A stretch of DNA of 64,000 nucleotides from Seonamhaeicola sp. GTDB lineage: Bacteria; Bacteroidota; Bacteroidia; Flavobacteriales; Flavobacteriaceae. How positions within the stretch are numbered: position 1 is the first letter of the stretch; each line of letters opens with the position of its first letter. The notes under the pieces are model-generated. The model saw nothing but the letters and a program-made list of their open reading frames with translations, was not told the origin of the DNA and did not search any database. Below are positions 7,529 through 37,580 of this stretch, piece after piece. Made by a program: the position numbers and the translations under genes. The stretch covers positions 124,001 through 188,000 of the forward strand of contig NZ_JANQJQ010000016.1 in NCBI RefSeq assembly GCF_028281565.1. The letters are read 5' to 3'.

Positions 7529-8104
7529 ATGATTTATGAAGTGCTACAGGTCTTAACCGAAGAGGTCAATAATTATATTGAAGGAGCTCCGGTGGCTCTT
7601 GATAATATAGCCTCCATAGAAACCGACACCAGTGATACGTCTGCTTCCATAGATATTGTATTGACTTTGCTAAACCTACAGGAGGAGTCTACTTTAAAAA
7701 ATATATCAAATTATTATGTCACCGATACCAAGGTGACCTATAAGAATCCACCAGTTAATATTAATCTTTTTATACTTTTTAGTGCTAATAACAGTACATA
7801 TTCCGAATCCTTAAAGAGTCTGTCCAGGATTATTGAATTCTTTCAGGGCAAGCATGTGTTCACACAGGACAATACGGACTTCGACAGGGATGTTGCCGGC
7901 ATGGAAAAGCTTAAGAATTTCAAATTTATTGTAGACCTCTATACACCCTCTTTTGAAGAGCTCAATTATATATGGGGAACTCTGGGAGGAAAGCAATACC
8001 CGTCAGTCTTGTATAAGGTCACACTCGTCCAGATAGAACGAGATATAGTACAGTCTGAAGGCGTGGTTATAACACAGATTAATCCTATTTTAAACAGAAA
8101 CTGA
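7529..8104 (+). CDS. eCIS DUF4255 protein (Pvc16/Afp16-like tube/sheath terminator)
   Basis: A 191-residue soluble protein that begins MIYEVLQVLTEEVNNYI, the hallmark start of DUF4255. In Afp, PVC and AlgoCIS particles this family ends or caps the distal end of the tube and sheath. It contains the usual IDIVLTLLNLQEE strand near residue 50 and a YKVTLVQIE segment near 170. It is the first gene of the cluster and is separated from the next by 2 bp. The start is fixed by the ATG at 7529. The function is assigned by family, not by structure. Confidence 0.85.
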   Translation: MIYEVLQVLTEEVNNYIEGAPVALDNIASIETDTSDTSASIDIVLTLLNLQEESTLKNISNYYVTDTKVTYKNPPVNINLFILFSANNSTYSESLKSLSRIIEFFQGKHVFTQDNTDFDRDVAGMEKLKNFKFIVDLYTPSFEELNYIWGTLGGKQYPSVLYKVTLVQIERDIVQSEGVVITQINPILNRN

Positions 8105-8106
8105 CC

Positions 8107-9099
8107 ATGATATTTAAAAGTATTTTCAATATCAGGTTGTACCATGGCTACTTTTTAAATGATGGGGAAAGTAACTTCTCCGGTATGTCTGACCTTAACA
8201 AAAACAGGATTTTAAAGAACTACAAGGTCTCCGAGTTCTTAGAGGTCCGTCCCACAGACGCTACAAAGAAGGCATTGAAGAATCACCGCATATTGTTTAA
8301 GCCCCATACCAGTGGTTTCAGGTTACTTGTAAGTGTGATCGAGCATACGGATACTAAATCCAGCCCACTCATTCCATTTGAAGATGATCTTAATTTTACA
8401 TTCGGTATTTACGCTAATGACCCCTATTTTGACAATTACTCACAGGTTGTAAACAGGATTGACAGGCGCCTGTATCTATTTTCAAACAGGATTCCCGCAA
8501 CCGAGGATGCCGGTTTTGCCAATATTTTTACAGATGATGGTACCGTGGATACAAGCTTTTTACTTAAGGAGACCAGCACAAGGAATTTGATGGCAGCCAT
8601 TGCCTTCGAAAACGAAGCATTAACTGAAAATACCGATACATTTTCCATTACCAATAGCTTCAGGGATATTGAAGCCAAAGTGAACCTCACAGATGCAGAA
8701 AAGAAGCCCCTTAAGAATGAGATCCTCAATGAAGCCTTATTAGCGGAAAAAAGAAATGGGCTTCTTGGGTTTATTCGTCTTTTTGTAAAAGGAGATGCTA
8801 ATAAAAACTTACTCAAGTTTGAGACTGTGGCCACTCAGGTAGAACAATATGTTTTAGAGACTACGCCGCTATTTACTTTAAGTTTTAAGAACAGGAAGAC
8901 ATTTTGGAGATATATCAAACCTTCCGATAACATCATATTAACCACAGATGCCACAAAGCCTTTAACAAAGAACGGTTTTGTAAAAATAGAACCCTCAGAT
9001 TTTAATCCTGCACCTACAGAAGATCATCACTATCCTAATCCGAGACCCGATATCATCCGGAAAGAGGGTAATAAATACTATTCAGAAATATTCATTTAA
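8107..9099 (+). CDS. Conserved eCIS protein of unknown fold, candidate cap-region component
   Basis: A 330-residue protein with no signal peptide or membrane segment. It opens MIFKSIFNIRLYHGYFLNDGE and looks beta-rich in the N-terminal half with a mixed second half. I do not recognise a named domain. It sits 2 bp after the DUF4255 gene and 22 bp before the sheath gene. AlgoCIS-type particles are known to have an extra adaptor between sheath/tube and cap, and position suggests that role here (inference). Immediate coupling to the structural genes makes a particle component much more likely than a cargo. Confidence 0.6.
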   Translation: MIFKSIFNIRLYHGYFLNDGESNFSGMSDLNKNRILKNYKVSEFLEVRPTDATKKALKNHRILFKPHTSGFRLLVSVIEHTDTKSSPLIPFEDDLNFTFGIYANDPYFDNYSQVVNRIDRRLYLFSNRIPATEDAGFANIFTDDGTVDTSFLLKETSTRNLMAAIAFENEALTENTDTFSITNSFRDIEAKVNLTDAEKKPLKNEILNEALLAEKRNGLLGFIRLFVKGDANKNLLKFETVATQVEQYVLETTPLFTLSFKNRKTFWRYIKPSDNIILTTDATKPLTKNGFVKIEPSDFNPAPTEDHHYPNPRPDIIRKEGNKYYSEIFI

Positions 9100-9121
9100 A
9101 AAAAGTTAAACAGTTAAAATT

Positions 9122-11026
9122 ATGGCAACAACGTACCAAACACCCGGAGTTTACATAGAGGAAATTGTAAAGTTTCCCCCGTCGGTGGCTCAAGTAGAAA
9201 CGGCTATTCCTGCCTTTATCGGCTATACGGAAAAAGCAACGAAAAAAGAAGATGGCGATTTAAATAATGTTCCTAAGCGCATTACTTCCATGCTGGAGTA
9301 TGAAACCTATTTTGGGAATGCCCTGAAAGAAACGGACATCGCCGTTACAGTGGTAGATAGTGACGTGATAACCGTTACCGCACCACCTGAGGATAAAAGA
9401 TCACCTTTTTTAATGTATTACTCCATGCAGATGTATTTTGCCAATGGTGGAGGCCCCTGTTACATTGTTTCAGTTGGTCAATATGGAGGGACGGTTGCTC
9501 CGGCAACATTAGTGAACCTTAATAATCTAAAGGCTGGCCTGGCTGCCATTAGAAAGGAAGATGAGCCAACGTTACTTCTTTTTCCGGATGCCACTTCATT
9601 ATTGAGTGATGGTGATTTTTATGCCATTTATGGTGATGCTTTAACGCAATGTAATGAGTTACAGGATCGTTTTACAATAATTGATACCTATTCTGATGCG
9701 GAATATGAAGATGACACGTCCAATGACGTGGACCCGATAGCTGCCCTTAGAACTAAAATAAGCCTGGAAAAAGACTATCTGAAGTATGGTGCCGTTTATT
9801 ATCCTTTTTTGGAAACCATTTTAGACTATGTCTATGATGACGCCCAGATAGATGTTACCCAGCAATCAACAAATCCCGATGATATTAAGCAAAAAGCACA
9901 GGATATTGCTGACGGCATTGATACCGGTGAATTTGACAGTGCTAAATTTGACACTTTGGAGGCTGAAATAACAGCCGTTTCAGGAGCCGATGCAGCCGAG
10001 ACAAATACCCTGGCAGTGGCATTCGTTCCTGCAGTAAAAAGTAAGATCGATACTTTTAAAACCTTGGTGAAGGGTGTGGTTACCGATTTGGAATCGGTTG
10101 TTGCCCTGGGCAAGCTGCATAATGCAGATGCTGAAGCAAACCTTTTGGATACCTGGGCTACAGACGAGATGGAACAGGCCCACCTGGATTTGAGTAAGGC
10201 CATAGACAGGTTGAACCTGGATGATACGAAAACAAAGATTCTCAATGAGATCACTACCACAAAAGCTGCTATCGATGCTATTAAAACAAAGTTGGATACG
10301 TTGAAAGCTTCCGGAGAATTATTTAACCTTATTGGGGCTTTGCCGGGAGCCGGAGCGACTTCAACCACGGTTAAATTAGACACCCTGGAATCAGGTAATA
10401 ACCAATTGTTCAATAGAATAAAAGCAGAAATAGGATTACTGCCGGTAAAATTACCACCAAGCACAACCATGGCAGGTGTATATGCCAGGGTTGATAGTGA
10501 TCGTGGCGTATGGAAAGCCCCGGCAAATGTGGGATTAAGTTATGTAACCAAACCCTCTGTGGTGGTTTCCCATGAAGACCAAAAGGATTATAATGTAGAT
10601 AAAGTAGCCGGTAAATCTGTAAACGCTATCAGGACCTTTACCGGTAAAGGTGTACTTGTCTGGGGGGCCAGAACTCTGGCCGGAAATGATCTGGAATGGC
10701 GTTATGTATCTGTACGACGCTTTTTTAATATGGCCGAAGAGTCCATTAAAAAAGCAACCGAACAATTCGTTTTTGAACCGAATGACAGGAATACCTGGGT
10801 TCGCGTTAAGGCCATGATCAACAATTTCCTCACTTTACAATGGCGCGCAGGAGCCCTGGCGGGTCCAACCCCAGAAAAAGCCTTCTACGTGAGTGTAGGC
10901 CTGGGAGAAACCATGACGGCACTTGACATTCTGGAAGGAAATATGATCATTGAAATTGGGCTGGCTGTAGTAAGACCGGCGGAATTTATTGTATTAAAAT
11001 TCTCTCATAAAATGCAAGAAGTATAA
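9122..11026 (+). CDS. Contractile tail sheath protein with large helical insertion
   Basis: A 634-residue sheath subunit that would polymerise around the inner tube and contract to drive it into a target. The N-terminal arm TYQTPGVYIEEI and the segment AFIGYTEKA are classic. The C-terminal core (about 540-634) has WVRVKAMINNFLTLQW and ends in the C-terminal arm FSHKMQEV. Between residues about 240 and 440 lies a roughly 200-residue helical, Ala/Asp/Lys-rich insertion, after which the core resumes at LPPSTTMAGVYARVD. Afp and PVC encode three sheath paralogs; only one is encoded here, so the sheath would be homopolymeric, and the insertion would lie on the outer surface. Confidence 0.95.
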   Translation: MATTYQTPGVYIEEIVKFPPSVAQVETAIPAFIGYTEKATKKEDGDLNNVPKRITSMLEYETYFGNALKETDIAVTVVDSDVITVTAPPEDKRSPFLMYYSMQMYFANGGGPCYIVSVGQYGGTVAPATLVNLNNLKAGLAAIRKEDEPTLLLFPDATSLLSDGDFYAIYGDALTQCNELQDRFTIIDTYSDAEYEDDTSNDVDPIAALRTKISLEKDYLKYGAVYYPFLETILDYVYDDAQIDVTQQSTNPDDIKQKAQDIADGIDTGEFDSAKFDTLEAEITAVSGADAAETNTLAVAFVPAVKSKIDTFKTLVKGVVTDLESVVALGKLHNADAEANLLDTWATDEMEQAHLDLSKAIDRLNLDDTKTKILNEITTTKAAIDAIKTKLDTLKASGELFNLIGALPGAGATSTTVKLDTLESGNNQLFNRIKAEIGLLPVKLPPSTTMAGVYARVDSDRGVWKAPANVGLSYVTKPSVVVSHEDQKDYNVDKVAGKSVNAIRTFTGKGVLVWGARTLAGNDLEWRYVSVRRFFNMAEESIKKATEQFVFEPNDRNTWVRVKAMINNFLTLQWRAGALAGPTPEKAFYVSVGLGETMTALDILEGNMIIEIGLAVVRPAEFIVLKFSHKMQEV

Positions 11027-11060
11027 CTAAACGATTCAGTAATTAAAAATCACAAAAATC

Positions 11061-11504
11061 ATGGCAACAGCATATGCATTACCAAAATTCCATTTTAAGG
11101 TCACTTTTGGAGATACCGAATTTAATTGCACCGAAGTTTCCGGACTCGATTTCGAAAGAGAGATCATAGAGTACCGGGGCGGTGCCGATAACGAATATCA
11201 TAAAACAAAACAGCCTGGTTTGGCCAAGTATAGTAATATTACGATAAAGCGCGGAACCTTTGCTGATAAGAGCAAAGAGTTTTATAGCCAATGGGTTAAA
11301 ACCGTTTATTTTCAGGAAGGTGAAGAAGAATTCCGTGGCGATTTAACCATTAGTATGCTCGACGAAAAACACGAGGCTGTAGTTAGTTGGAAGGCAGAAC
11401 GGGCTTATATAACCAAGATACAGTCCACAGATCTGAAGGCTGATGGGAACGAGATCGCCATTGAAACTGCAGAATTTGTTCACGAAAAACTGTCCTTATT
11501 ATAA
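11061..11504 (+). CDS. eCIS inner tube protein (Pvc1-like)
   Basis: A 147-residue member of the phage tail tube (gp19/Hcp-like) family. It begins ATAYALPKFHFKVTFGD and has the central YRGGADNEYHKTKQPG and ITIKRGTF motifs that define tube subunits of PVC-like systems. Hexameric rings of this protein would stack into the needle whose lumen carries cargo. Its stop overlaps the next start by one base (TAATG), consistent with translational coupling to the second tube protein. Confidence 0.95.
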   Translation: MATAYALPKFHFKVTFGDTEFNCTEVSGLDFEREIIEYRGGADNEYHKTKQPGLAKYSNITIKRGTFADKSKEFYSQWVKTVYFQEGEEEFRGDLTISMLDEKHEAVVSWKAERAYITKIQSTDLKADGNEIAIETAEFVHEKLSLL

Positions 11505-11956
11505 TGGCATCCTATTATCCACCTGTAGGCTTTCACTTTAGGGTTGAATTTCCTTCGAATATCGAAGGAGCGGATACAACCAATGATTTTCAATTTCAAT
11601 CGGTTTCCGGTCTTTCAGTAGATATGGAAACCGAAGAGATTGCCGAAGGTGGAGAGAACCGGTTTAAACATCGCATTCCGGTAAGAACCAAATATCCTAA
11701 TCTGGTTTTAAAAAGAGGCATGATGGTTAATTCCGGTCTGATAGAATGGTGTAGAAAAGCACTGGAAAATTTCGAGATCGTTCCTGTTGATATCATTGTC
11801 AAGTTACTCAATGAAAAGCACGAACCCTTGCAAAGTTGGAATGTGATTCATGCCTACCCGGTAAAATGGGATGTTGGAGACTTTAATGCCGAAGAGAACA
11901 AACTCGTCATTGAAACACTTGAATTATCGTATAACTATTTCAAAATTTTAAGCTAA
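11504..11956 (+). CDS. Second eCIS tube protein (Pvc5-like tube initiator)
   Basis: A 150-residue homolog of the preceding tube protein with the variant start YYPPVGFHFRVEF and the pattern VSGLSVDMETEEI...GGENRF. Pvc5-type paralogs form the first ring connecting tube to spike and baseplate. The loop WCRKALENFEIVPVDI differs from the main tube subunit. It overlaps both neighbours through TAATG junctions, so three genes in a row are translationally coupled. Confidence 0.9.
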   Translation: MASYYPPVGFHFRVEFPSNIEGADTTNDFQFQSVSGLSVDMETEEIAEGGENRFKHRIPVRTKYPNLVLKRGMMVNSGLIEWCRKALENFEIVPVDIIVKLLNEKHEPLQSWNVIHAYPVKWDVGDFNAEENKLVIETLELSYNYFKILS

Positions 11957-12123
11957 TGCCCATAGAGATCAAGGAATTGCACATAAAGATCAATGTTGAT
12001 GAAGGGGCTAATCGTGGCAACAATGCCTCCGAAGGCGGAGCATCGGCTACTTCAAAAGCCGATATTATTGCTACCTGCATTGAAGAGGTTATGTACATTT
12101 TGGAAAAACAGAAACAACGCTAG
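11956..12123 (+). CDS. Small DUF5908-like eCIS protein
   Basis: A 55-residue gene beginning MPIEIKELHIKINV, with ATG 11956-11958 overlapping the stop of the second tube gene and ending TAG 12121-12123. DUF5908-type proteins with this MPIEIKEL opening occur between tube and LysM genes in Bacteroidota eCIS clusters. After a Gly/Ser/Ala-rich stretch, the C-terminal half is a single predicted helix (IIATCIEEVMYILEKQKQR). The role is unknown; a minor baseplate or assembly factor is likely. The one-base overlap and 12-bp gap to the next gene support that it is real. Confidence 0.75.
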   Translation: MPIEIKELHIKINVDEGANRGNNASEGGASATSKADIIATCIEEVMYILEKQKQR

Positions 12124-12135
12124 TAATGTATCATT

Positions 12136-12861
12136 ATGAGTGAAGGGAAATTACAAAAGCTGGTTATCCGCTGTTTTAAGGATGAAAAATTTAAGGAGGA
12201 GATCACCGATCTGAAATATACGGCGCTGCTAAACCCTGAAAAATACTCACAAACCTTTAAAACAGAGTACAAAAAAGAGCAGGCCTCCGGTAATAGTGCC
12301 ACGGATCCGAAGTTTACACGATCGCTGCCTACCGATCTGGATTTTGAATTCCTCTTTGATAGAACCGGGGTTATTGTGCACTATGGCGATGACCCTGAAG
12401 CCAGTGACGATGACATTGTGTATAAAGACCAGGGCAATGGTATCATTGATGATATTGAGAATTTCAAGAAAGCGGTTTTCGATTATAATGGCGATAAGCA
12501 TAAACCCAATTATTTATTGGTATGCTGGGGAAATTTGGCGTTTAAAGGGATTTTAACCGAACTAAATATCGAATACAAGCTTTTCAAGCCGGATGGAACA
12601 CCCATCAGAGCTATAGCCAAAGTAAAGTTCATTTCCCATAAGGAGGCGGAAAGGAGAGCTGCGGAAGAAAACAATCAATCGCCTGATCTCACACATTATC
12701 GCAAGGTTAAAGAAGGGGATACCCTCGCACTGATGACACATAGGATCTACGGTGATTCCAAGTATTACCTGGAGGTAGCCAGAGCTAATAATATTATCAA
12801 TTTCAGAAAGTTGACACCGGGACAGGAATTAATCTTTCCGCCGTTAAAAAAGACATCTTAA
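12136..12861 (+). CDS. LysM-containing eCIS tube/spike adaptor (Pvc7-like)
   Basis: A 241-residue protein. Residues 1-170 match the CIS tube-protein/gp53-like baseplate fold (EGKLQKLVIRCF at the start, FLFDRTG and LLVCWGNLAFKGILTEL in the middle). Residues about 188-238 form a LysM domain (VKEGDTLALMTHRIYGD ... LTPGQELIFPP). In PVC-like particles this component links the initiator tube ring to the spike; LysM here is structural rather than a secreted wall-binding module. It abuts the spike gene directly (stop 12859-12861, start 12862). Confidence 0.88.
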   Translation: MSEGKLQKLVIRCFKDEKFKEEITDLKYTALLNPEKYSQTFKTEYKKEQASGNSATDPKFTRSLPTDLDFEFLFDRTGVIVHYGDDPEASDDDIVYKDQGNGIIDDIENFKKAVFDYNGDKHKPNYLLVCWGNLAFKGILTELNIEYKLFKPDGTPIRAIAKVKFISHKEAERRAAEENNQSPDLTHYRKVKEGDTLALMTHRIYGDSKYYLEVARANNIINFRKLTPGQELIFPPLKKTS

Positions 12862-14607
12862 ATGAACAATAGCGATATCATACAAACCTCAAAAAGTGCT
12901 GATCTCATTACCCATAAGATACTGATCGAAGGGGATGAGCTTTCAAACATCTATCAGGTTAAGAGTATTGTTGTTAACAGAGAAGTAAACAGGATACCCT
13001 CGGCACAGATCGTGTTGATCGATGGCGAAGCTGCGGTGCGCGATTTTAAATTGAGCAATGAAGCTTTTCTGATTCCGGGCAAAGAAGTTGAAATAACCGC
13101 TGGATACCATTCTGATGAAGAAACCATTTTTAAAGGCATTGTTATCAGGCATAATTTAAGGATCCGGGAAAACAGCTCCCAGCTTATTATTGAATGCAAG
13201 GATGAAGCCGTAAAGATGACCATTGGCAGGAAGAGCAAATACTTTTACGATAGTAAAGACAGTGACATCTTCGAGCAGTTAATAGGGGATTATGGCCTTT
13301 CGAAGGAAGTAGAGGCCACAACACATACGCATCAGGAGCTTGTACAATACAATGCTTCCGATTGGGATTTTATGATCTCCAGGGCCCAGGCCAACGGCAA
13401 ACTGTGTTTTATAGACGACGGAAAAGTAACCGTTGCCAAGCCTAATGTAGAGCAACCTGAGATTGAGACTGTGACTTTTGGTGCCACCCTTCTGGATTTT
13501 GACGCCGAGATCGATGCACGTCATCAGGTCCAAAAGGTGTCTTCCTATGGATGGAATCACGCAGACCAGGAATTGCTGGAAATTGAAGGGACTGATCCGG
13601 GCGTGTCACTAAACGGGAATTTGTCGAATGCCGATCTGAATGCTGTGATCGGGTTGGAGAATTTGGAATTACGACATGGCGGTGCTATAACCGATGCGGA
13701 ATTACAGGAATGGGCTAACGGTAAGTGGTTGTTTCAACAATTGGCAAAAGTACGTGGCAGGGTACGGTTTCAGGGTATTCCTGCTGTAAAACCTAATACC
13801 ATTTTAAAGTTGGAAGGAGTAGGTGACCGCTTTAACGGTAAAGCCTACGTTACCGCCATACAACATACGATTACAGAAGGAAACTGGACCGTAAATGCAC
13901 AGTTTGGATTAAACCCCGAATGGTTTTCCGAAACCTTCGATATTAGTGCCCAGCCTGCTTCGGGCCTGTTACCGGCTATTAACGGTTTACAGGTAGGGAT
14001 CGTTTCACAACTCCAGGATGATCCCGATGGAGAAGACCGTATTTTAGTACAGATCCCCATAATTGATAACGAGGAGCAGGGTATCTGGTGCCGGGTAGCG
14101 TCTCTGGATGCAGGAGATAGCCGGGGCGCCTTTTTTCGTCCTGAAATTGAAGATGAGGTTATTGTAGGTTTTATAAATGAAGACCCCAACGAAGCTGTGG
14201 TCCTGGGCATGTTGCACAGTAGTGCAAAACCGGCCCCCATTACAGCCGCCGATGACAATCATGAAAAGGGCTTTGTGACCAGAAGCGAAATGAAGATCCT
14301 GTTTGATGACGATAAAAAGACACTGAATATATCGACCCCTGTGGGGAAGAAAATTTCACTCGATGAAGATGCCGGAACCATTGTTATAGAAGATGATCAT
14401 TCCAATAAGATCACTCTGGACAGTAATGGCATCCTTATGGAAAGCCAGGGGAATATAGATTTAAAGGCATCAGGAGATGTCAATATAGAAGGAACAAATG
14501 TTAATCTTAAAGCCAGTGCCTCATTTAAAGCGGAGGGATCGGCAGGCGCCGAAGTTTCAACATCAGCTACTGCCATTTTAAAGGGATCGCTGGTACAAAT
14601 AAATTAA
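12862..14607 (+). CDS. VgrG-like spike protein (Pvc8-like)
   Basis: A 581-residue trimeric spike. The N-terminal gp27/phage late control D part spans about 1-350 (VNREVNRIPSAQIVLIDG, then a GYHSDEETIFKGIVIRH strand). The OB-like gp5 part follows at about 375-460 (VGIVSQLQDDPDGEDRILVQIP), and a Gly/Ser/Ala beta-prism forms the C-terminus. No additional catalytic domain is attached, so it is a plain spike rather than an evolved effector. It precedes the PAAR gene by 3 bp, which would cap its tip. Confidence 0.93.
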   Translation: MNNSDIIQTSKSADLITHKILIEGDELSNIYQVKSIVVNREVNRIPSAQIVLIDGEAAVRDFKLSNEAFLIPGKEVEITAGYHSDEETIFKGIVIRHNLRIRENSSQLIIECKDEAVKMTIGRKSKYFYDSKDSDIFEQLIGDYGLSKEVEATTHTHQELVQYNASDWDFMISRAQANGKLCFIDDGKVTVAKPNVEQPEIETVTFGATLLDFDAEIDARHQVQKVSSYGWNHADQELLEIEGTDPGVSLNGNLSNADLNAVIGLENLELRHGGAITDAELQEWANGKWLFQQLAKVRGRVRFQGIPAVKPNTILKLEGVGDRFNGKAYVTAIQHTITEGNWTVNAQFGLNPEWFSETFDISAQPASGLLPAINGLQVGIVSQLQDDPDGEDRILVQIPIIDNEEQGIWCRVASLDAGDSRGAFFRPEIEDEVIVGFINEDPNEAVVLGMLHSSAKPAPITAADDNHEKGFVTRSEMKILFDDDKKTLNISTPVGKKISLDEDAGTIVIEDDHSNKITLDSNGILMESQGNIDLKASGDVNIEGTNVNLKASASFKAEGSAGAEVSTSATAILKGSLVQIN

Positions 14608-14610
14608 AGT

Positions 14611-30134: not shown

Positions 30135-30746
30135 ATGAAAGCATTATTTGAAAACCTCTTTTTGTACGAAATCATACTGCTCTTTTTAGGAGTAATATTT
30201 TTCCTGTTGTTATGTGCCATGTTGTATCGTAATTACACCAGCGATAAACCCTTTACAGGGCTTTTGAAATTTTTCCTGCTTCCAATCATTATGATAGCCT
30301 ATCCCAGTATTAAGTCGGTCCAGATTGGTGACTGGAAGCTTGAAATGGAACGGGCTAAGGTAGCCGTGTCTTCCAATCCTGAGGATAATCTGGCTATAAA
30401 ACAATTGACCGAGATAACAGAGAAACTTCAAAAACGAGCTAAAACGCCTGAGGATATATTGTCTATAGGGCAGGCGAAATTCTTATTGGGAGATAGTAAG
30501 GAGGCCATAAAATTTGCTGATGAGGCTATTACTGTATCTCTCGAAAACGCTGATAATCCTAAAGACAAAGTCATTAAAGAAAGTGCTACACAATTAAAAC
30601 AACTTGCAAATTTTCAGCAAGAGGTTAAAAATGGACGGGATACACATTTGCTACAGGAAGGGGTAGCCGAAATGGAGGTAATTGATCCCAATAGTCGTTT
30701 GTATATCGAGAACAAATTTAAGATTAATGAAGGGCTGGGGTATTGA
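30135..30746 (+). CDS. Small membrane protein with helical-repeat tail, unknown role
   Basis: A 203-residue protein with two N-terminal transmembrane segments (about 11-31 and 41-56), then a cytoplasmic helical region containing a TPR-like unit (EDILSIGQAKFLLGDSKEAIKFADEAI). I recognise no named family. It lies between the two DUF4157 cargo genes (43 bp after one, 27 bp before the next). Possible roles are a protective partner, a loading factor or a release factor; the sequence does not decide between them. Confidence 0.55.
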   Translation: MKALFENLFLYEIILLFLGVIFFLLLCAMLYRNYTSDKPFTGLLKFFLLPIIMIAYPSIKSVQIGDWKLEMERAKVAVSSNPEDNLAIKQLTEITEKLQKRAKTPEDILSIGQAKFLLGDSKEAIKFADEAITVSLENADNPKDKVIKESATQLKQLANFQQEVKNGRDTHLLQEGVAEMEVIDPNSRLYIENKFKINEGLGY

Positions 30747-30773
30747 AATAGAGAAGTAATAGAGTTATAATTA

Positions 30774-33700
30774 ATGTTTGCGGCTAAGCACATAAAAAAA
30801 TCATCAGGACATTCGTCAACACAACATACGAACAAGACTGGTACGCCTTTTATTCAACCTAAACTGAATTTTGGCCAGGCCGGAGATCAATACGAGCTTG
30901 AAGCCGATAAGGTGGCCGATCAGATTGTGGCCGGAAAGGAAGCATTGAGCCCTTCATTTTTTAGTCCTGTTGCAAACATTCAGAAGATGACCGAGGAAGA
31001 CATCCAGCAAAAAGAGGAGGAGCAGCTCCAGCAAAAAGAAGATGAGAATTTTCTTCAAAAACAATCTGTCGGGTCAGGTGATCCGGGAGATACGACCTCA
31101 TTGGAAACCGGTCTGAATAATTCAAAAGGTTCCGGCAGCCGGCTGTCCGATGGTACCCGTAGTGAGATGGAGTCCGGTTTTGGTGCCAATTTCAGTGATG
31201 TAAGGGTACATACCGATTCTAATGCCGTTCAAATGAGCAAGAGTATAGGCGCTCAGGCGTTTACCCATGGTAATGATATTTATTTCAATGAGGGAAAATA
31301 TAACCCTGGTAGTGATTCCGGAAAACATTTATTGGCACATGAACTCACGCATACCGTACAACAGGGAGCGTCATCGGTGCAACCGAAAATGATTCAAAAG
31401 GATGATGACGATAACCCGCCGGAAATACCACAAACCGGAAGTAATTATGATTTTACCTCCAGCCCTCCTAAAATTTATATAGATAATTTACCAATCCCGG
31501 CTTTTAAAAGCGCTTTTATGTCCGCCTCCGGGAACTTTAGAGCAAGGGAGTTTAGCGGCTCAGGACGTTCAGGGGACAATGATGCTAACCAGGCAGGTGT
31601 TTGGAATACTATTAGTAGTGAAGGGGCCCATGGAAAACTATTAACTGGTGGTATCCAGGATGATCATTTATATGGTATTTCAACCCGGGTCAGCTCAGGA
31701 GGGAGAAATAAAAGTTTTGAAAGAAATGGTGATGCCGGACTTCTTGCAGAAAACTTAAAAGTTCCTTTCTGGGATGATGAATCCGGGGTAAAGGAATATT
31801 ATCAGATTGATCATATGCAGGAACTTCAACTCAAAGGCTGGCCCAGAGTAAGAACGGCAGGGCTTATTGATAATCTTCACTTACTTTCGAATGAAGCGAA
31901 CAGAACTTCCGGAACCACAATTTTAGATAGTGTAAATACATCTATAAAAGACCTTGTTAGGACAGATCAACCTCTTAAAGATGCAGTTGCTGCTCAGGGT
32001 ATCAATGTAAATAGGATTAACAATACCCTGGCAAATACAATTAAGTCCCGTTTTGATATTCATTACAGGAGTTTTACTACGACTTCAGACCCTCCTAATT
32101 TAAAGACCTGGAATAAGGGGCAGGTTCAGTCCGGAGACCATATTGATAAACTATTATCCAGACAAAAAGGTCGGGGAGCGATTAATTTTTATGATTTCCA
32201 GGATCCTAATCCTTCTCCGTCTTTGCCATTCGATCCACATCCTTCAAATTTAAACCTTGAAGGCCGGATGGGATCAAGTTCAAGCTATGTCCTTTATTGG
32301 GGAGATAATTTGGGGAATAGGACCAAATTGGCCTGGAATGACCCTAACACTATAACACAACAGGCTTCAACAAATTTATTTAACCCCAGACTAACCATGC
32401 ATGGCAAATTTTTCAATGTAGAGACCATGCAATTTGATCCGGCAGTTAACGAGGGAAGAAAGGGGCATCTAAGGGGCAAACCATTTAAGTTCAGAACTAG
32501 GGATGGTAGTAGACAATTATTAATGTTGCCTGAATATTTCAACTGGCCAATTTATAAAATGCCCGGAACCACATACGCTGGCTTCTTGAAGTCGAGTGAT
32601 CTTAAAGACTTTCTTAATAATACTCAAGCAGAGTTTGAATTATTAAGCCCATTCAGTATTGACAGTATTCTTTTTACTGAGTCTGGTCTTAGAGCACGGG
32701 GTACACTGTTACCTTCGGTACCTTTTATCTCCAGGGCAAATATTGAGATTGTCATTACGGAAGATGATGTCATACTACAGAAAGTATTTTCAAGTGGAGA
32801 TTTGGACATGCCAGCCCCATTTAATATTTCAGATGTAAGCCTAACATTAGGTTATGGCCTCCGTAGAGGTTTCTTAATTGGTGGTCGGGTTAACTTTGGG
32901 ATCGATAATGTAGGGGATGGTTATATTGGAGCAATAGCTTCTACTCGTGGTGGTTTTGAACTGGAGGGCGCTTTTAATTTTGATTCCGAACTCTTTGATC
33001 CGGCCCAAATAAATGTAGAATATAAAGATAATATATGGACCATTGGAGGGGAGATCGGTATCCCTGAAGGCAAGATAAGAGGTGTTAAAAATGCTACTAT
33101 TACAGCGTCTTACAGTGAGAACAATTTTACGGCAACAGGAACTGCCGAACTTGACATACCGGGTATAGAGCGTGGTACCATGACCGTTAATTATGGAGAT
33201 CAGGGCTTCTCCATTAGTGGGGACTTTGATCTGAGCTCTGATATACCGGGAATCCGTAGTGGAAACGTGGCTGCGACCATATCCAGACAAAATGGAGAAG
33301 AAGGTTACAACGTCATGGTTTCCGGAACCGCGCAGCCGGATATTCCGGGAATTGACACCTCTCTGACAGTTACTTATGATAACGGAGCCTTGACTATTGA
33401 AGGCACCGCAGCCTATGCCCGAGGTATGTTGTCCGGTACTGTCCGTATAGGGGCCACAAATCGTGCTATTGGTGATGATGGCCAGCCTAATGGAGATCCC
33501 GATGATACCATGCGTGTGTATGGCGGTGGTAGTTTAACGTTACGTCTAACACCCTGGCTGGAGGCTACGGCAGGCGTGAATTTCCTTCCTAATGGCGAAA
33601 TTGAGGTTACCGGGCGTATTGGATTACCAAGTACCGTTGATGTATTCGACAGGCGATCCTTCGATAGGAACCTGTTCAATATTCCGGCTATTGAAATACC

Positions 33701-34337
33701 CATATTTGCCATTCCATTAGGTCCTAGAAGTATTGGACTGGTTGCCAGAATTACTGGCGGACTGGACTTTTCAGCCGGTTTTGGTCCGGGGCAATTAAGA
33801 GACCTTTATGCACAGGTAACCTATAACCCGGACAGGGAAGATGAAACCACCATTTCCGGGCATGGCGAATTTGTTATTCCGGCCGATGCCGGCCTTACTT
33901 TAAGAGGTGATCTAGGGTTGGGCGTAAGTGTTGGTTTTGCCAGCCTAACGGGAGGCATCGAGTTGGCAGGTACTTTAGGATTGGAAGGAGAAGCTGCAGC
34001 GGAAGTAGATGTTAACTGGAGCCCGCAAACAGGTCTGGCTTTAGATGCCGAAGGCAGAATTACGGTGAACCCGAAATTCCAGTTTGATATCAATGCGTTT
34101 GCAAGAGCCAGCCTGGATCTTTGGTTGATCTCCCTTTCTGAAACATGGCGCTATAATCTGGCATCCTTCTCATGGGGGCCTGATATCCAATTTGGAATTG
34201 TATTCCCTATTCATTACCGCGAAGGACTACCATTTGATATATCGTTTGATGATTTACAGGTTATTTATCCCGATATCGATGTGGTGAATATGGCTAAAGG
34301 GCTGGCCCGTGATATAAAAGATAATATTTTCGATTAA
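30774..34337 (+). CDS. Giant DUF4157 eCIS cargo with HNH-like motif and beta-repeat C-terminus
   Basis: An 1187-residue protein. The leader repeats the pattern of the first cargo: KLNFGQAGDQYELEADKVAD at 30-49, a short IQQKEEEQLQQKED linker, then DUF4157 at about 119-197 with HELTH at 189-193. Residues about 225-435 contain a probable treble-clef/HNH-type nuclease motif (YQIDHMQELQL with Asp346-His347, then DNLHLLSNEANRTSG at 366-380). From about 690 to 1140 the chain is Gly-rich beta repeats with three DIPGI units at 794, 823 and 856. No signal peptide is present, in line with loading into a particle rather than Sec export. Nuclease activity is inferred from the motif only. Confidence 0.75.
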   Translation: MFAAKHIKKSSGHSSTQHTNKTGTPFIQPKLNFGQAGDQYELEADKVADQIVAGKEALSPSFFSPVANIQKMTEEDIQQKEEEQLQQKEDENFLQKQSVGSGDPGDTTSLETGLNNSKGSGSRLSDGTRSEMESGFGANFSDVRVHTDSNAVQMSKSIGAQAFTHGNDIYFNEGKYNPGSDSGKHLLAHELTHTVQQGASSVQPKMIQKDDDDNPPEIPQTGSNYDFTSSPPKIYIDNLPIPAFKSAFMSASGNFRAREFSGSGRSGDNDANQAGVWNTISSEGAHGKLLTGGIQDDHLYGISTRVSSGGRNKSFERNGDAGLLAENLKVPFWDDESGVKEYYQIDHMQELQLKGWPRVRTAGLIDNLHLLSNEANRTSGTTILDSVNTSIKDLVRTDQPLKDAVAAQGINVNRINNTLANTIKSRFDIHYRSFTTTSDPPNLKTWNKGQVQSGDHIDKLLSRQKGRGAINFYDFQDPNPSPSLPFDPHPSNLNLEGRMGSSSSYVLYWGDNLGNRTKLAWNDPNTITQQASTNLFNPRLTMHGKFFNVETMQFDPAVNEGRKGHLRGKPFKFRTRDGSRQLLMLPEYFNWPIYKMPGTTYAGFLKSSDLKDFLNNTQAEFELLSPFSIDSILFTESGLRARGTLLPSVPFISRANIEIVITEDDVILQKVFSSGDLDMPAPFNISDVSLTLGYGLRRGFLIGGRVNFGIDNVGDGYIGAIASTRGGFELEGAFNFDSELFDPAQINVEYKDNIWTIGGEIGIPEGKIRGVKNATITASYSENNFTATGTAELDIPGIERGTMTVNYGDQGFSISGDFDLSSDIPGIRSGNVAATISRQNGEEGYNVMVSGTAQPDIPGIDTSLTVTYDNGALTIEGTAAYARGMLSGTVRIGATNRAIGDDGQPNGDPDDTMRVYGGGSLTLRLTPWLEATAGVNFLPNGEIEVTGRIGLPSTVDVFDRRSFDRNLFNIPAIEIPIFAIPLGPRSIGLVARITGGLDFSAGFGPGQLRDLYAQVTYNPDREDETTISGHGEFVIPADAGLTLRGDLGLGVSVGFASLTGGIELAGTLGLEGEAAAEVDVNWSPQTGLALDAEGRITVNPKFQFDINAFARASLDLWLISLSETWRYNLASFSWGPDIQFGIVFPIHYREGLPFDISFDDLQVIYPDIDVVNMAKGLARDIKDNIFD

Positions 34338-34349
34338 ATACAAGAGACC

Positions 34350-35321
34350 ATGATGACACAAGAAGAACAATTGAATAACGAAGGTGTGAAGCATTTCTTA
34401 AATGGTGAATTTAAAGATGCAAAGGTCAAGTACGACCAGGCTTTGGAAGTGAAGCCTGACTATGCTACCGCTTTGAACAACCTGGGCATGCTTTGGCTAC
34501 AGGAAAAGGAGTTTGAAAAAGCCGCTACCTGTTTTGAGAAAGCTAATAACACATCGGAAAATGCCACTTACATACTTAACCTGGGGCATGCCTATGCTAA
34601 CCGGAATATGATAAAACAGGCAGAAGATTGCTATCGTAAAAGTATTGAACTTGATCCCAATAAACTGATAGCCTGGAAAAGCCTGGCCGCTTTATACCAG
34701 GCACAAAAACGGTTTGTCGATTCAGCTACTATATGGAACACCATCATTGAAAATTACAGCCGTGATCCCGAATATAAGATTCAATTAGCCAAAGACCTCA
34801 TAAACCTCAAAGAGTTTAATAATGCATTGGCAGTACTTCATGATGCCGCTAACTATGACAAGAATATAGAGGTTACCTGCTACTACATAGCATTAGTTCA
34901 TTTTAATAACAGGAATTTCGGATTGGCCCTGGATGCCATAAATAAAAGTATGGTGGTTCGGCCCGATGAGAATAGGTTCAGACTGTTGGCCGCTTCTATT
35001 TACCTGGGGCTTGGCCAATTAGATAGAGCAATGATGCAATGGGATCATATATTGCATATGGAAGCCGATAATCATAAAGTCAGAACTGACAAAGCGGTCG
35101 CTTTGTTATCTCATAATTATAAAGACAAAGCCCTTAAGGAACTGGATTATGTCCTTTTAAGGGATAAGGATAATATTAAAGCCAGATTCTACAAGGCATT
35201 AACGCTCATTGAAATGAAAGCTAGAATGGATGAAGCGAGAAAGATTCTTGAGCTTTTGGCAGGCGGGGAGCATGCTTTTACAGCCAGGGTTGAACAATTG
35301 TTACAAACACTAAGATCATAG
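34350..35321 (+). CDS. TPR-repeat protein in the eCIS cargo block
   Basis: A 323-residue soluble protein composed almost wholly of TPR units (for example FKDAKVKYDQALEVKPDYATALNNLG, then IKQAEDCYRKSIELDPNKLIAW); about eight repeats are visible. TPR proteins act as docking scaffolds. It lies 12 bp after the giant cargo gene and 74 bp before the CHAP-like gene, so a chaperone or loading-adaptor role for the cargo is attractive but unproven. No signal peptide or membrane segment is present. Confidence 0.7.
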   Translation: MMTQEEQLNNEGVKHFLNGEFKDAKVKYDQALEVKPDYATALNNLGMLWLQEKEFEKAATCFEKANNTSENATYILNLGHAYANRNMIKQAEDCYRKSIELDPNKLIAWKSLAALYQAQKRFVDSATIWNTIIENYSRDPEYKIQLAKDLINLKEFNNALAVLHDAANYDKNIEVTCYYIALVHFNNRNFGLALDAINKSMVVRPDENRFRLLAASIYLGLGQLDRAMMQWDHILHMEADNHKVRTDKAVALLSHNYKDKALKELDYVLLRDKDNIKARFYKALTLIEMKARMDEARKILELLAGGEHAFTARVEQLLQTLRS

Positions 35322-35395
35322 AAACAGAAGCCTGTCTCCCGGAGCTAAGTAGAACGTTATAACAATCATTTACACTAATACAAACAAAATAAATC

Positions 35396-36220
35396 ATGAT
35401 AAAAAAAGCCTATAAAAAAGAGCTTGTTATAAAAACAACGCAACGGAAGAACGGAACAACTAATAACAGGAAAGACGTCCGTAAGATCCAGTCATGGCTA
35501 TCGCTTTATGCCATTCAAAACCCGCATAGTGGAACAGCTACTGCCATAGATGGCGACTTTGGGCCCGCCACAGATGGGGCGGTTAAGAACTTTCAAATGG
35601 CACGTAACGTTGCGGTAAACGGTATTGTGGACCATGGGTTATTTTCGTTACTGTCCGGGAATATGTTAGATGCTTTTGAAACGCCCTTACAGGAAACAAC
35701 CCTTAGGGACCTTGTTATTGAGGCTGCAGAAAATCATTTAAAGAATTTTGCATTTGAATTACAAATTAACGGGGCTTCCAATAGCGGCCCCTGGGTGCGT
35801 GCTTACATGGACGGTCATGACGGCTCGCCATGGTACTGGTGCATGGGGTTTGTACAGACCATTATAGACCAGGCAGCAAGTAGTGTGGGGAAAAGTTTTA
35901 AAAAACTGATGCCTTTAACTTATAGTTGTGATACAGTGGGTACGGTTGGGGTTCAAAAAAACTTACTGACCAGGTATCGGGTCATCAGGCAGCACCCTGA
36001 AATTATAGAGCCCGGAGATATATTCCTTATTCAGAAATCCCTTAACGACTGGATACATACCGGTATAATAACAGCCATAGATGGGGATGTGATTGAAACC
36101 ATTGAAGGTAACACCAATCAGGCCGGTTCCCGAAACGGTATAGCGGTTATGAAAAGGAACAGGAACTTTAGAAAATCGAAAATCGATGTGTTTTCAATCG
36201 CACCACTTGTTAATGCATAA
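35396..36220 (+). CDS. Peptidoglycan-binding/CHAP-like cysteine peptidase (putative eCIS lysin)
   Basis: A 274-residue protein. Residues about 25-88 form a PG_binding_1 domain (VRKIQSWLSLYAI ... IDGDFGPATDGAVKNFQ). Residues about 100-260 form a CHAP/NlpC-like amidase with Cys149 in WYWCMGFVQ, His221 in WIHTGII and polar partner Glu237 or Asn239 in IEGNTN. The predicted reaction is peptidoglycan peptide or amide cleavage. No signal peptide is visible, so access to the wall would need a holin-like pore or delivery by the particle. Together with the membrane protein at 27963 it could form a release module; it could also be a delivered antibacterial effector. Confidence 0.8.
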   Translation: MIKKAYKKELVIKTTQRKNGTTNNRKDVRKIQSWLSLYAIQNPHSGTATAIDGDFGPATDGAVKNFQMARNVAVNGIVDHGLFSLLSGNMLDAFETPLQETTLRDLVIEAAENHLKNFAFELQINGASNSGPWVRAYMDGHDGSPWYWCMGFVQTIIDQAASSVGKSFKKLMPLTYSCDTVGTVGVQKNLLTRYRVIRQHPEIIEPGDIFLIQKSLNDWIHTGIITAIDGDVIETIEGNTNQAGSRNGIAVMKRNRNFRKSKIDVFSIAPLVNA

Positions 36221-36230
36221 AACCTGAACC

Positions 36231-37580
36231 ATGATAAATAATGTCAGCAAACCACAGGAGGATAGTTATATCCGGTGTTTTTCCTTTCTAAGAGAGCGTA
36301 TAAAACATCGCCTTAGAACCGAATACAATTTGGCAAAGGATCCGGTTCCCGAGTTGGATACACTTAACTTAACTGATGACAGCCATTTGTCTGCTTTTAT
36401 AAAACGGGAACACTTATCTGATGAGGACACCATATTGTTGCTTTTAGCACTTGTAACGCATTTGGCTCCCGGTTTTTTATCGGATATCATATCGGATGTC
36501 TTTCCCAATGGCGGTGAATTTCCGGAATTTGGAGGGGTTAAGGGAAAGCAGCACCGTGGTATTTTGCCTACGGGAGAAACTGCCTTATTTGTGCTTTTCG
36601 GAAGTCATTACCAACAACGGCTTCGGGGTATGAACCTGATTTATGGCGACTCGATCTTGTTTCGTAAAAATATGCTATGCCTGGGGGCGGTACCCAAAGG
36701 AGAGCCCCCGATGAGTGGAAAACTGTTAATAGATGAAGAGTACCTGGCCCGACTTACTACAGGCAAGGTGCTAAAGCCCAAACTGAGTGAAGATTTTCCA
36801 GCGAGCATTATTGAGACCGGATTGGAATGGTCTGATCTGATACTCAATCCGAAAACGCTTGCCGAGATCAAGGAAATAGAGGTCTGGTTACAGTATAATC
36901 AAATACTCATGAGGGACTGGGGCATGAAAGCAAAGATCAAACCGGGATTCAGAGTCATGTTCCATGGCCTTCCGGGAACTGGAAAAACGCTTACGGCCAG
37001 CCTTTTGGGAAAATATACAGGCCGCGATGTATATCGGGTAGACCTGTCAATGGTGGTTTCCAAATATATAGGTGAAACCGAGAAAAGCCTGTCTCGTCTT
37101 TTCGACAAGGCTGCTGATAAGGATTGGATCCTGTTTTTTGATGAGGCCGATTCTGTTTTCGGGAAGCGCACCAATGTCCGGGATGCCCATGATAAATATG
37201 CCAATCAGGAGGTATCCTATCTGTTACAACGTATTGAAGCCCATTCCGGGTTGGTGATCCTGGCTTCCAATTTTAAGAGCAATATTGATACGGCCTTCAC
37301 CAGGCGCTTCCAGTCCCTGGTTGAATTTGATATGCCTTCCTACAACGAACGGTTACAGCTTTGGAAAAATAACTTACCTGAAGTGATTGCCCTGGATAGT
37401 GATGTCAATTTGGAAGACATTGCCCGGAAGTATGCCGTTAGCGGAGCCAGTATTGTTAATATCATTCATTATACCTGTCTTAAGACCCTGGCATCCAATC
37501 AATCCCTGATAAAACGTGCTGATCTGATGGAGGGCATCAAGAAGGAGTATCAGAAAGAGGGCAAGACCTTAAATGTATAA
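36231..37580 (+). CDS. eCIS AAA+ ATPase (Pvc15-like)
   Basis: A 449-residue protein with an N-terminal helical and linker region (1-200) and a Ftsh/CDC48-type AAA+ domain (about 205-440). Walker A GLPGTGKT is at 246-253, Walker B ILFFDEAD at 300-307, sensor 1 Asn347 in ILASN, and arginine-finger residues are in FTRRF near 357-360. A single such ATPase is a defining member of eCIS clusters (Pvc15/Afp15) and is thought to help assembly or cargo loading; T6SS uses ClpV instead, which has two AAA domains. It is the last gene before the terminator. Confidence 0.92.
   Translation: MINNVSKPQEDSYIRCFSFLRERIKHRLRTEYNLAKDPVPELDTLNLTDDSHLSAFIKREHLSDEDTILLLLALVTHLAPGFLSDIISDVFPNGGEFPEFGGVKGKQHRGILPTGETALFVLFGSHYQQRLRGMNLIYGDSILFRKNMLCLGAVPKGEPPMSGKLLIDEEYLARLTTGKVLKPKLSEDFPASIIETGLEWSDLILNPKTLAEIKEIEVWLQYNQILMRDWGMKAKIKPGFRVMFHGLPGTGKTLTASLLGKYTGRDVYRVDLSMVVSKYIGETEKSLSRLFDKAADKDWILFFDEADSVFGKRTNVRDAHDKYANQEVSYLLQRIEAHSGLVILASNFKSNIDTAFTRRFQSLVEFDMPSYNERLQLWKNNLPEVIALDSDVNLEDIARKYAVSGASIVNIIHYTCLKTLASNQSLIKRADLMEGIKKEYQKEGKTLNV

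What the first reader, a model, noticed from the sequence alone, without database searches (positions are those of the whole stretch)
7529..37580. Complete Bacteroidota eCIS locus with an internal cargo and release block
Twenty-one co-directional genes run for 30 kb with gaps mostly under 45 bp and many one- or four-base overlaps, ending at one terminator. All core parts of a contractile particle are present exactly once, apart from the two tube paralogs. DUF4255, CIS_TMP and a single AAA+ ATPase, with no TssJLM or ClpV gene, place it with PVC/Afp/AlgoCIS particles. Between tape measure and ATPase lie two DUF4157 cargo genes, a holin-like gene, a CHAP-like gene and two unknown partners.
Basis: partly seen in the sequence, partly recalled or inferred. 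Interest (0 to 1): 0.8.

Follow-up and report, generated by a model that had tools for sequence, protein, structure and literature searches.

The report
Bacterial injection particle with lysis enzyme
This stretch encodes a phage-tail-like particle that a bacterium could release to inject proteins into other cells, of a kind already known from Algoriphagus, together with a cell-wall-cutting enzyme whose family keeps company with such particles and may be how they get out of the cell.

Summary
In detail: 21 co-directional genes at 7529-37580, no internal stops, one terminator-like stem. It is an AlgoCIS-type eCIS. Sheath, two large baseplate proteins, fibre and cap adaptor all match AlgoCIS chains best in the PDB. 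AlgoCIS already has two DUF4157 cargo proteins (PMC8894135), so core and cargo layout are not new. CIS_TMP is in 1 of 7 genomes of the genus; three relatives hold both flanks together without the locus. The part worth keeping is gene 35396-36220, a peptidoglycan-binding CHAP protein that matches phage endolysins. Of the best 80 relatives (of 338), 46 have eCIS genes within 10 kb; 34 of the 43 scored lie directly before the ATPase. Of 29 other Bacteroidota copies, 23 are in genomes with an eCIS elsewhere. In one sample 11 of 12 carriers have CIS_TMP, against 32 of 383 non-carriers. An N-acetylmuramidase version fills the same slot in other loci. I favour a dedicated release enzyme; an injected effector is the main rival. 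The 'holin' is unproven.

The parts
7529..8104 (+). g01 cap (Pvc16_N / DUF4255; Alg16A position)
   Evidence: Pfam PF14065 E 2.7e-38
8107..9099 (+). g02 cap adaptor
   Evidence: best PDB match 7adz_1A, AlgoCIS cap adaptor, E 3.4e-30
9122..11026 (+). g03 single contractile sheath
   Evidence: PF17482; AlgoCIS sheath 7adz_2A 640 bits, then All3325 520, 9r9h 363, Afp/Pvc up to 215, T4 gp18 and pyocin 23-24
11061..11504 (+). g04 tube, gp19 family
   Evidence: PF06841 E 3.3e-35
11504..11956 (+). g05 tube, gp19 family
   Evidence: PF06841 E 1.5e-45
11956..12123 (+). 55-aa DUF5908 protein; position of the AlgoCIS plug Alg6 (position only, not compared in sequence)
   Evidence: PF19265 E 1.1e-19
12136..12861 (+). 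g06 tube initiator, CIS_tube with a weak LysM-like end
   Evidence: PF19266 E 1.8e-52
12862..14607 (+). g07 hub/spike (GPD + OB)
   Evidence: PF04717 E 6e-20; PF05954 E 9e-7, just under its cut-off
14611..14898 (+). g08 PAAR tip
   Evidence: PF05488
14900..15316 (+). g09 gp25 wedge
   Evidence: PF04965
15327..18548 (+). g10 baseplate, AlgoCIS Baseplate_J protein (Alg11 position)
   Evidence: 7aeb_G 767 bits over the whole length
18536..21223 (+). g11 baseplate, Alg12-like
   Evidence: 7aeb_A 955 bits over the whole length
21235..26172 (+). g12 tail fibre, Alg19 position; best stretch of the match is residues 1-554
   Evidence: 9wt0_a 'PKD domain-containing protein' 565 bits
26172..27854 (+). 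g13 CIS_TMP (tape measure family)
   Evidence: PF19268 E 1.2e-101
27963..28487 (+). g14 membrane protein, four hydrophobic segments, overlaps g15 by 4 bases; holin-like only by size and hydropathy
   Evidence: hydropathy; relatives 49% identical in a Tenacibaculum and an Aquimarina eCIS
28484..30091 (+). g15 cargo: acidic low-complexity leader, DUF4157 with HELTH, C-terminal papain-like motif (CWAA...GHAVV...DP, motif reading)
   Evidence: PF13699 E 1.3e-30; sequence
30135..30746 (+). g16 membrane hairpin + TPR-like helices
   Evidence: AlphaFold2 mean pLDDT 79.5; relatives mostly in Aquimarina/Tenacibaculum eCIS
30774..34337 (+). g17 cargo: DUF4157, HNH-like motif, long conserved C-terminal part
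   Evidence: PF13699 E 3.8e-32; motif kept in g17 and five relatives; C-terminal part 65-66% identical in three loci
34350..35321 (+). g18 TPR partner of g17
   Evidence: TPR; beside the g17-type C-terminal part in four other loci
35396..36220 (+). g19 eCIS-linked endolysin-like enzyme: PG_binding_1 + CHAP, invariant C149, H221, E237, no hydrophobic leader
36231..37580 (+). g20 AAA+ ATPase (Pvc15/Alg15 position)
   Evidence: PF00004 E 2.6e-24
37623..37650 (+). terminator-like stem and T-rich tail
   Evidence: 12 pairs, 4 of them G-C (5 such sites found in 4 kb, 3.8 expected, this one has by far the longest stem)
6420..7064 (-). LuxR-type response regulator, divergent, about 460 bp upstream; candidate regulator
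   Evidence: PF00072 + PF00196; GerE genes adjoin 25.8% of eCIS loci (PMC8213781 passage)

Best explanation
The locus makes an AlgoCIS-type extracellular contractile injection particle with one sheath, cap and cap adaptor, a plug-like small protein, two large baseplate proteins, an Alg19-like fibre and an AAA+ ATPase. Two DUF4157 proteins are the likely tube cargo: one with a papain-like cysteine-peptidase motif, one with an HNH-nuclease-like motif and its own TPR partner. Particles would assemble in the cytoplasm. Gene 35396-36220 is then, most likely, a dedicated endolysin: it cuts the producer's own wall so that particles get out, as lysis genes do for phages and tailocins. The operon's membrane proteins (g16, perhaps g14) are candidates for giving it access to the periplasm. 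Shown by sequence: particle type, cargo domain, endolysin relationship, linkage of the endolysin family to eCIS in cis and trans. Inferred: cargo loading, enzyme activities, lysis of the producer, role of g14 and g16.
For: Particle. Cargo layout as in AlgoCIS. Endolysin: PHROG lysis/endolysin families, Myxococcus phage Mx4 'putative endolysin endopeptidase' 37% over 85% and annotated Streptomyces phage endolysins at 28-33% over 42-45%. Linkage in cis: 46 of the 80 kept loci; 34 of 43 scored ones directly before the ATPase, 2 directly after, 7 elsewhere. Linkage in trans: 23 of 29 Bacteroidota copies without eCIS genes in the fetched flanks are in genomes with CIS_TMP. Same-sample 2x2, window's own genome included: 11 of 12 carriers against 32 of 383 non-carriers (order), 12 of 14 against 34 of 285 (family), 10 of 10 against 30 of 226 genera. 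A different enzyme with the same layout (PG_binding_1 + N-acetylmuramidase, PHROG endolysin E 1e-90) takes the slot elsewhere; of the 18 lysins called in 66 complete loci, 12 are directly before the ATPase and 2 directly after. No DUF4157, no leader. Among 29 detached copies no neighbour gene within three places is shared by more than 7.
Against: Only 19 of 66 complete loci carry either lysin type, so it is not needed everywhere. Nine carrier genomes have neither CIS_TMP nor CIS_tube; in one of them the gene is broken (the CIS_tube search rang in no control genome). No holin-like gene is constant: the five Flavobacterium-genus loci with the CHAP gene have neither g16 nor the 8-TM protein. Many linked copies have an unknown 190-435-aa gene directly before them, one of them SUKH-type, which could be an immunity gene for the cargo before it or, less likely, for the lysin. 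Published work counts proteins with peptidoglycan-binding domains among predicted injected toxins (68 of the predicted EATs; PMC11297309 passage). The model of the g15 end failed (pLDDT 33.8).
Confidence: 0.6

Rival explanations
1. g19 is an injected antibacterial effector: the particle fires into another bacterium and delivers the wall-cutting enzyme to its periplasm together with the two DUF4157 cargos.
For: AlgoCIS binds a bacterium, Echinicola pacifica, and its tube ends in that cell's periplasm (PMC13314943 section 8). A peptidoglycan hydrolase toxin (EAT10) is known from another eCIS, and many tested EATs lack immunity genes (PMC8213781 passages). It sits in the cargo block. A SUKH-type immunity gene stands directly before the CHAP gene in a Tenacibaculum locus, and unknown genes stand there in many others.
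Against: No DUF4157 and no acidic leader as in g15 and g17; detached copies lie among ordinary metabolic genes where neighbours were scanned (L131, L159, L166, L168); no shared partner gene, detached or linked; its identity across 42 loci (mean 70%) exceeds that of the ATPase (65%) and tracks it (Mantel r 0.84), unlike fast-changing effectors.
Confidence: 0.27
2. g19 is a tail-associated lysin carried on the particle that opens the target wall for the tube, like the lysozyme part of T4 gp5 (comparison recalled).
For: Phage-derived enzyme in the operon; AlgoCIS acts on a walled cell.
Against: Neither lysin type was found in 47 of 66 complete loci; placed beside the ATPase, not beside hub or tip; the words lysin and peptidoglycan do not occur in the main text of the AlgoCIS paper.
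Confidence: 0.08
3. g14 and g16 are loading or protection factors for the cargo and have nothing to do with release.
For: g14 overlaps the first DUF4157 gene by 4 bases here and in L134; g16 often lies between two cargo genes; its model is a membrane hairpin with TPR-like helices, with no significant fold match and TPR proteins leading the list.
Against: The C-terminal ends of the neighbouring cargo differ while g14 is kept at 49%, so a toxin-specific immunity protein is unlikely; g16 stands beside the CHAP gene without eCIS genes in L286, and directly beside it in L175 and L190.
Confidence: 0.5
4. The particle is a membrane-anchored T6SS (iv-like) rather than an extracellular one.
For: Clade Ib contains T6SS-iv (PMC8894135 section 6); g14 and g16 are membrane proteins.
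Against: Best match of five structural proteins is AlgoCIS, which is free in the cytoplasm and found in the medium; no anchor domain hit.
Confidence: 0.05

Closest known systems
AlgoCIS of Algoriphagus machipongonensis (clade Ib eCIS; PMC8894135, PMC13314943)
   Same: Cap adaptor, sheath, both large baseplate proteins and fibre match AlgoCIS chains best in the PDB; cap, plug position, CIS_TMP, two DUF4157 genes and AAA+ ATPase agree in kind.
   Different: Extra genes g14, g16, g18 and the endolysin-like g19; different cargo ends; fibre match strongest over its first third. The words holin, lysin and peptidoglycan do not occur in the main text of PMC8894135. The AlgoCIS genome itself was not searched for the CHAP family by name.
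Antifeeding prophage (Afp) and its predicted lysis cassette (endopeptidase, holin, lysozyme), as told in PMC12961389 (passage)
   Same: An eCIS with lysis-type genes beside it.
   Different: That cassette lies upstream of the Afp operon; here one endolysin-like gene lies inside the operon before the ATPase. The enzymes were not compared in sequence. Afp has several sheath proteins (Afp2, Afp3, Afp4), here one.
R-tailocins with holin, lysin and spanin (PMC10598620 passages)
   Same: Phage-tail-like particle released by lysis with genes of the same cluster.
   Different: R-tailocins act without injected effectors (PMC12961389 passage); here two DUF4157 cargo genes and an AAA+ ATPase.
EAT10 and other peptidoglycan-acting eCIS toxins (PMC8213781, PMC11297309 passages)
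   Same: Peptidoglycan hydrolysis predicted, no DUF4157 in EAT10.
   Different: EAT10 is from Pseudoalteromonas luteoviolacea; its sequence was not compared here.
Phage endolysins with PG_binding_1 + CHAP or + N-acetylmuramidase
   Same: Domains, size, lack of leader; PHROG endolysin families.
   Different: Linked to eCIS rather than to a prophage; 36-39% identity to the three best viral contigs over most of the length (best 80 of 130 kept).

Membership tests
AlgoCIS-type (clade Ib) eCIS | Cap adaptor Alg16B next to a short cap | tested here: met
   7adz_1A E 3.4e-30 for g02; g01 191 aa, Pvc16_N over 4-182
AlgoCIS-type (clade Ib) eCIS | Large baseplate proteins Alg11 and Alg12 | tested here: met
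   767 and 955 bits over full length
AlgoCIS-type (clade Ib) eCIS | Plug protein Alg6 | tested here: inconclusive
   DUF5908 protein in that position; not compared with Alg6 itself
AlgoCIS-type (clade Ib) eCIS | Two DUF4157 cargo genes in the cluster | tested here: met
   two matches, the only two in the genome; cargo role by analogy
AlgoCIS-type (clade Ib) eCIS | Sheath closer to AlgoCIS than to T6SS, phage or PVC/Afp sheaths | tested here: met
   bit-score ranking in the PDB, no tree built; no T6SS sheath is in the list at E 0.001
AlgoCIS-type (clade Ib) eCIS | Free particles in the cytoplasm and the medium | not testable with these tools
   needs electron microscopy
PVC/Afp (clade Ia) | Several sheath paralogs (Pvc2-4, Afp2-4) | tested here: not met
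   one sheath gene
Type VI secretion system | Membrane complex and ClpV genes in the cluster | tested here: not met
   no such domain in the 20 proteins scanned; rest of the genome not searched
Phage-type endolysin (g19) | Wall-binding plus catalytic domain with the residues of a CHAP enzyme | tested here: met
   PF01471 E 5e-10; PF05257 E 3.2e-5, 24.8 bits against a cut-off of 26; C149, H221, E237 invariant in 10 of 10; that these are the catalytic residues is recalled
Phage-type endolysin (g19) | No Sec leader, needs a holin | tested here: inconclusive
   no hydrophobic segment; no holin identified
Phage-type endolysin (g19) | Lyses the producer | not testable with these tools
   experiment
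Holin (g14) | Match to a holin family | tested here: inconclusive
   no family match; four hydrophobic segments; no structure predicted

The most novel reading that the evidence does not exclude
Bacteroidota eCIS have their own dedicated exit enzyme. One operon slot beside the ATPase is filled by one of two unrelated catalytic domains (CHAP or N-acetylmuramidase) on the same kind of wall-binding head. The enzyme works with operon-borne membrane proteins (g16 type, or an 8-TM protein with a patatin-like motif) as a non-canonical lysis cassette, and it may also act from elsewhere in the genome.
Probability: 0.42. Interest if true: 0.65.

Novelty: new member of a known kind. Interest (0 to 1): 0.45.

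Why it matters
How eCIS particles leave a Gram-negative producer is mostly told as 'cell lysis', and a review notes that some eCIS loci lack a lysis cassette and that their regulation is unclear (PMC10598620 passage). An endolysin family that tracks eCIS in cis and in trans gives a gene to delete and a simple read-out. It also bears on whether eCIS proteins with peptidoglycan-binding domains should be counted as injected toxins.

Tried and rejected
Single-sequence AlphaFold2 of the g15 end gave no model (mean pLDDT 33.8), so the papain-like call stays at motif level. Fold searches with the g16 model gave no match at E 0.001 or better. PDB sequence searches for g15 and g17 gave nothing useful. 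A cognate-immunity role for g14 was set aside, because its neighbour cargo changes while g14 stays. A constant holin partner was looked for: g16 or the 8-TM protein is in 9 of 19 lysin loci against 6 of 47 others (Fisher 0.007; lists put together by hand), so it is enriched but not constant. Other wall hydrolases in the 47 complete loci without a lysin: of 74 proteins of 120-480 aa only 3 have PG_binding_1, and no other wall-hydrolase family is among the 25 of 63 families shown. An immunity partner directly before linked lysins was looked for: unknown genes of many unrelated clusters (largest cluster 8 members, counting the two places before the lysin), 0 Pfam hits in 10 of them scanned, one SUKH gene in L119. 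Cargo ends are shared by 221 of 780 locus pairs; those loci were chosen for having the CHAP gene, so I draw no conclusion. A tree of 77 CHAP proteins needs 9 changes between linked and detached (6 forced by well-supported branches). No sheath or ATPase tree was built.

'eCIS beside it' means an ATPase, TMP or DUF4157 hit to HMMs that I built from relatives, inside fetched flanks of at most 10 kb; several 'detached' copies (for example L123, L188, L191) are on short contigs, where neighbours may simply be cut off. In 5 of the 80 loci my ORF caller did not pick the CHAP frame (L124, L125, L161, L192, L193); the first three have eCIS genes and count among the 46. Several genomes are near-duplicates or share a genus, so the Fisher values overstate independence; the genus count is the safest. 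The two searches of each 2x2 were separate calls with the same number of genomes and the same handles, taken to be the same draw. Without the window's own genome the counts are 10 of 11 and 11 of 13. One eCIS-linked contig is labelled Limnohabitans (L157). Of 82 loci, 16 lacked a called TMP or ATPase and were dropped before the 66-locus count; lysin hits under 100 bits (such as L095) were not counted; L038 was added. Only two muramidase-type lysins (L042, L039) were scanned with Pfam; the other six are HMM hits.

Full report
WHAT IS THERE. The 30-kb run is real. Twenty ORFs of 95 aa or more plus one 55-aa ORF (DUF5908, 11956-12123) lie on the + strand from 7529 to 37580 without internal stops, all but two gaps 43 bp or less, with a terminator-like stem of 12 pairs at 37623-37650. 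Locus GC is 41.7% against 39.4% for the whole window.

WHICH PARTICLE. Pfam names most parts. The five structural proteins compared with solved structures point to one system: cap adaptor g02 to 7adz_1A (E 3.4e-30), sheath g03 to 7adz_2A (640 bits; then All3325, of a cyanobacterial CIS by recall, 520; 9r9h 363; Afp/Pvc up to 215; T4 and pyocin 23-24), g10 to 7aeb_G (767 bits), g11 to Alg12 (955 bits) and the fibre g12 to 9wt0_a (565 bits, best stretch residues 1-554). This is an AlgoCIS-type eCIS rather than a PVC/Afp one. I built no tree.

WHERE IT SITS. CIS_TMP is found in 1 of 7 genomes of the genus, 46 of 299 sampled genomes of the family and 75 of 395 of the phylum. In G001 the relatives of the window's genes at 1118 (left flank) and 37764 (right flank) are 0.2 kb apart; in G003 and G005 they are 2.4-2.6 kb apart with one other gene between; in G002 only the right-hand genes are on the fetched contig end; in G004 and G006 the left-hand genes were not in the fetched stretch. 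So about 35 kb, including 2497-6330 and 6420-7064, looks inserted. G001 and G006 carry, near the Mg-chelatase gene, a LuxR-type gene 58-60% identical to 6420-7064. The divergent LuxR-type response regulator fits the report that GerE genes adjoin 25.8% of eCIS loci (PMC8213781 passage).

THE CARGO BLOCK. AlgoCIS has two DUF4157 proteins shown to fill the tube (PMC8894135 section 15). Here g15 and g17 have a similar layout: an acidic low-complexity leader, DUF4157 with HELTH, and different ends. The end of g15 reads CWAA...GHAVV...DP, a papain-like pattern (from memory; no Pfam hit; structure model failed). Residues 205-480 of g17 carry DH...N...N, kept in g17 and five relatives, an HNH-like pattern (name recalled). 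The part of g17 after about residue 500-575 is 65-66% identical in three loci and 39-45% in two more, and the TPR gene g18 stands beside it in four of these five, so g18 looks like a partner of that part. g14 (four hydrophobic segments) has relatives in a Tenacibaculum and an Aquimarina eCIS (49% identity), again directly before the first DUF4157 gene, whose end shows no similarity to that of g15 at E 1e-4. g16 has 15 relatives at 27-47% identity among the loci held, 10 of them from Aquimarina or Tenacibaculum; the model is a membrane hairpin with TPR-like helices (mean pLDDT 79.5), without a significant fold match.

THE ENDOLYSIN. g19 has PG_binding_1 and CHAP (the latter just under its cut-off), no hydrophobic leader and C149, H221 and E237 invariant in ten aligned sequences. 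It matches PHROG endolysins (best 7e-11), Myxococcus phage Mx4 gene 76, noted 'putative endolysin endopeptidase' (37% over 85%), and Streptomyces phage endolysins. A scan of genome contigs kept the best 80 of 338 relatives. Of these, 46 have eCIS genes within the fetched flanks; of the 43 whose frame was called, 34 are directly before the ATPase, 2 directly after and 7 elsewhere. The other 34 were tested for an eCIS elsewhere in the genome: 23 of 29 Bacteroidota genomes have CIS_TMP, 0 of 5 others do. In evenly drawn samples, 11 of 12 carriers have CIS_TMP against 32 of 383 non-carriers (order), and 12 of 14 against 34 of 285 (family); by genus 10 of 10 against 30 of 226. Against this, nine carrier genomes lack both CIS_TMP and CIS_tube, one of them with a broken gene (the CIS_tube search rang in no control genome). 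Several detached Aequorivita-type copies have the same downstream gene sizes (about 281, 242, 244, 408 with 11 hydrophobic segments) as eCIS loci L041, L042 and L046, so they may be left over from an eCIS at that place (compared by size and order only).

A SECOND ENZYME IN THE SAME SLOT. In 66 of 82 fetched loci both TMP and ATPase were called. Eighteen of these, the window included, carry one lysin: ten of the g19 type and eight with PG_binding_1 + N-acetylmuramidase (for L042: PF11860 E 1.5e-65, PHROG endolysin E 1.2e-90). Twelve are directly before the ATPase, two directly after, four between TMP and ATPase. L038 adds a nineteenth. Two of the named contigs (L133, L139) have both types. Two unrelated catalytic domains on the same kind of head in the same slot argue for wall cutting as the selected function.

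RELEASE OR INJECTION. For release: phage endolysin ancestry, no DUF4157, no leader, detached copies among metabolic genes where scanned, no partner gene shared by more than 7 of 29 detached copies, and high conservation that tracks the ATPase. For injection: AlgoCIS punctures Echinicola pacifica and its tube ends in that cell's periplasm (PMC13314943 section 8); a peptidoglycan hydrolase is among tested eCIS toxins (EAT10); 68 predicted toxins have peptidoglycan-binding domains (PMC11297309 passage); unknown genes, once a SUKH gene, stand directly before many linked lysins and could be immunity genes, though in the window that place is held by g18. A holin is needed for a classical route and is not identified; g16 or an 8-TM protein with a patatin-like motif (motif reading; 0 Pfam hits) is enriched beside lysins (9 of 19 against 6 of 47) but not constant.

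NOVELTY AND PAPERS. The particle and the two-cargo layout are known. A predicted lysis cassette is known for Afp (PMC12961389 passage) and lysis genes for tailocins (PMC10598620 passage). In the searches and the passages read I found no description of an endolysin family tied to Bacteroidota eCIS. Supplementary files were not read, the library holds open-licence papers only, and the 68 peptidoglycan-binding predicted toxins of PMC11297309 may include this family. What I saw of each paper: PMC8894135 abstract, sections 6, 8, 15 and passages; PMC13314943 abstract and section 8; PMC8213781, PMC11297309, PMC12961389, PMC10598620, PMC7394362, PMC12210884, PMC8528098 and PMC12237407 passages only; all others listings only. 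Hence 'new member of a known kind', with the endolysin as the point to test.

Noticed in passing
window 6420-7064 (-): LuxR-type response regulator divergent from the operon; a 58-60% relative sits beside the Mg-chelatase gene in G001 and 7 kb from it in G006, which have no CIS_TMP.
   Followed up: partly
window 2497-6330 (+): 1277-aa protein with an M48 peptidase domain, without a relative in the fetched site of six same-genus genomes; seems part of the inserted stretch.
   Followed up: no
window 42797-43210 (+): Partial IS200-type transposase (Y1_Tnp just under its cut-off), a likely remnant.
   Followed up: no
L042:5502-8111 (family also in L035, L038, L039, L045, L046, L057, L117, L140, L151, L178): About 870-aa protein with 8-9 hydrophobic segments and a patatin-like GASGGS motif (motif reading; 0 Pfam hits), beside both lysin types in eCIS operons and as a pair with the CHAP gene without eCIS genes around it.
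   Followed up: partly
L119:8673-9893: SUKH-1 (SMI1/KNR4) immunity-type gene directly before the CHAP gene in a Tenacibaculum eCIS; SUKH also in 2 of 74 other cargo-block proteins: a hint of bacterial targets.
   Followed up: partly
L289 (G527): CHAP gene broken by stops in a genome without CIS_TMP or CIS_tube.
   Followed up: partly
L157: Contig of a 'Limnohabitans' MAG carries a Flavobacterium-like CHAP gene and eCIS genes; binning error or transfer.
   Followed up: no
L048: One locus of the family with eight DUF4157 genes after CIS_TMP (one search run, shown).
   Followed up: no
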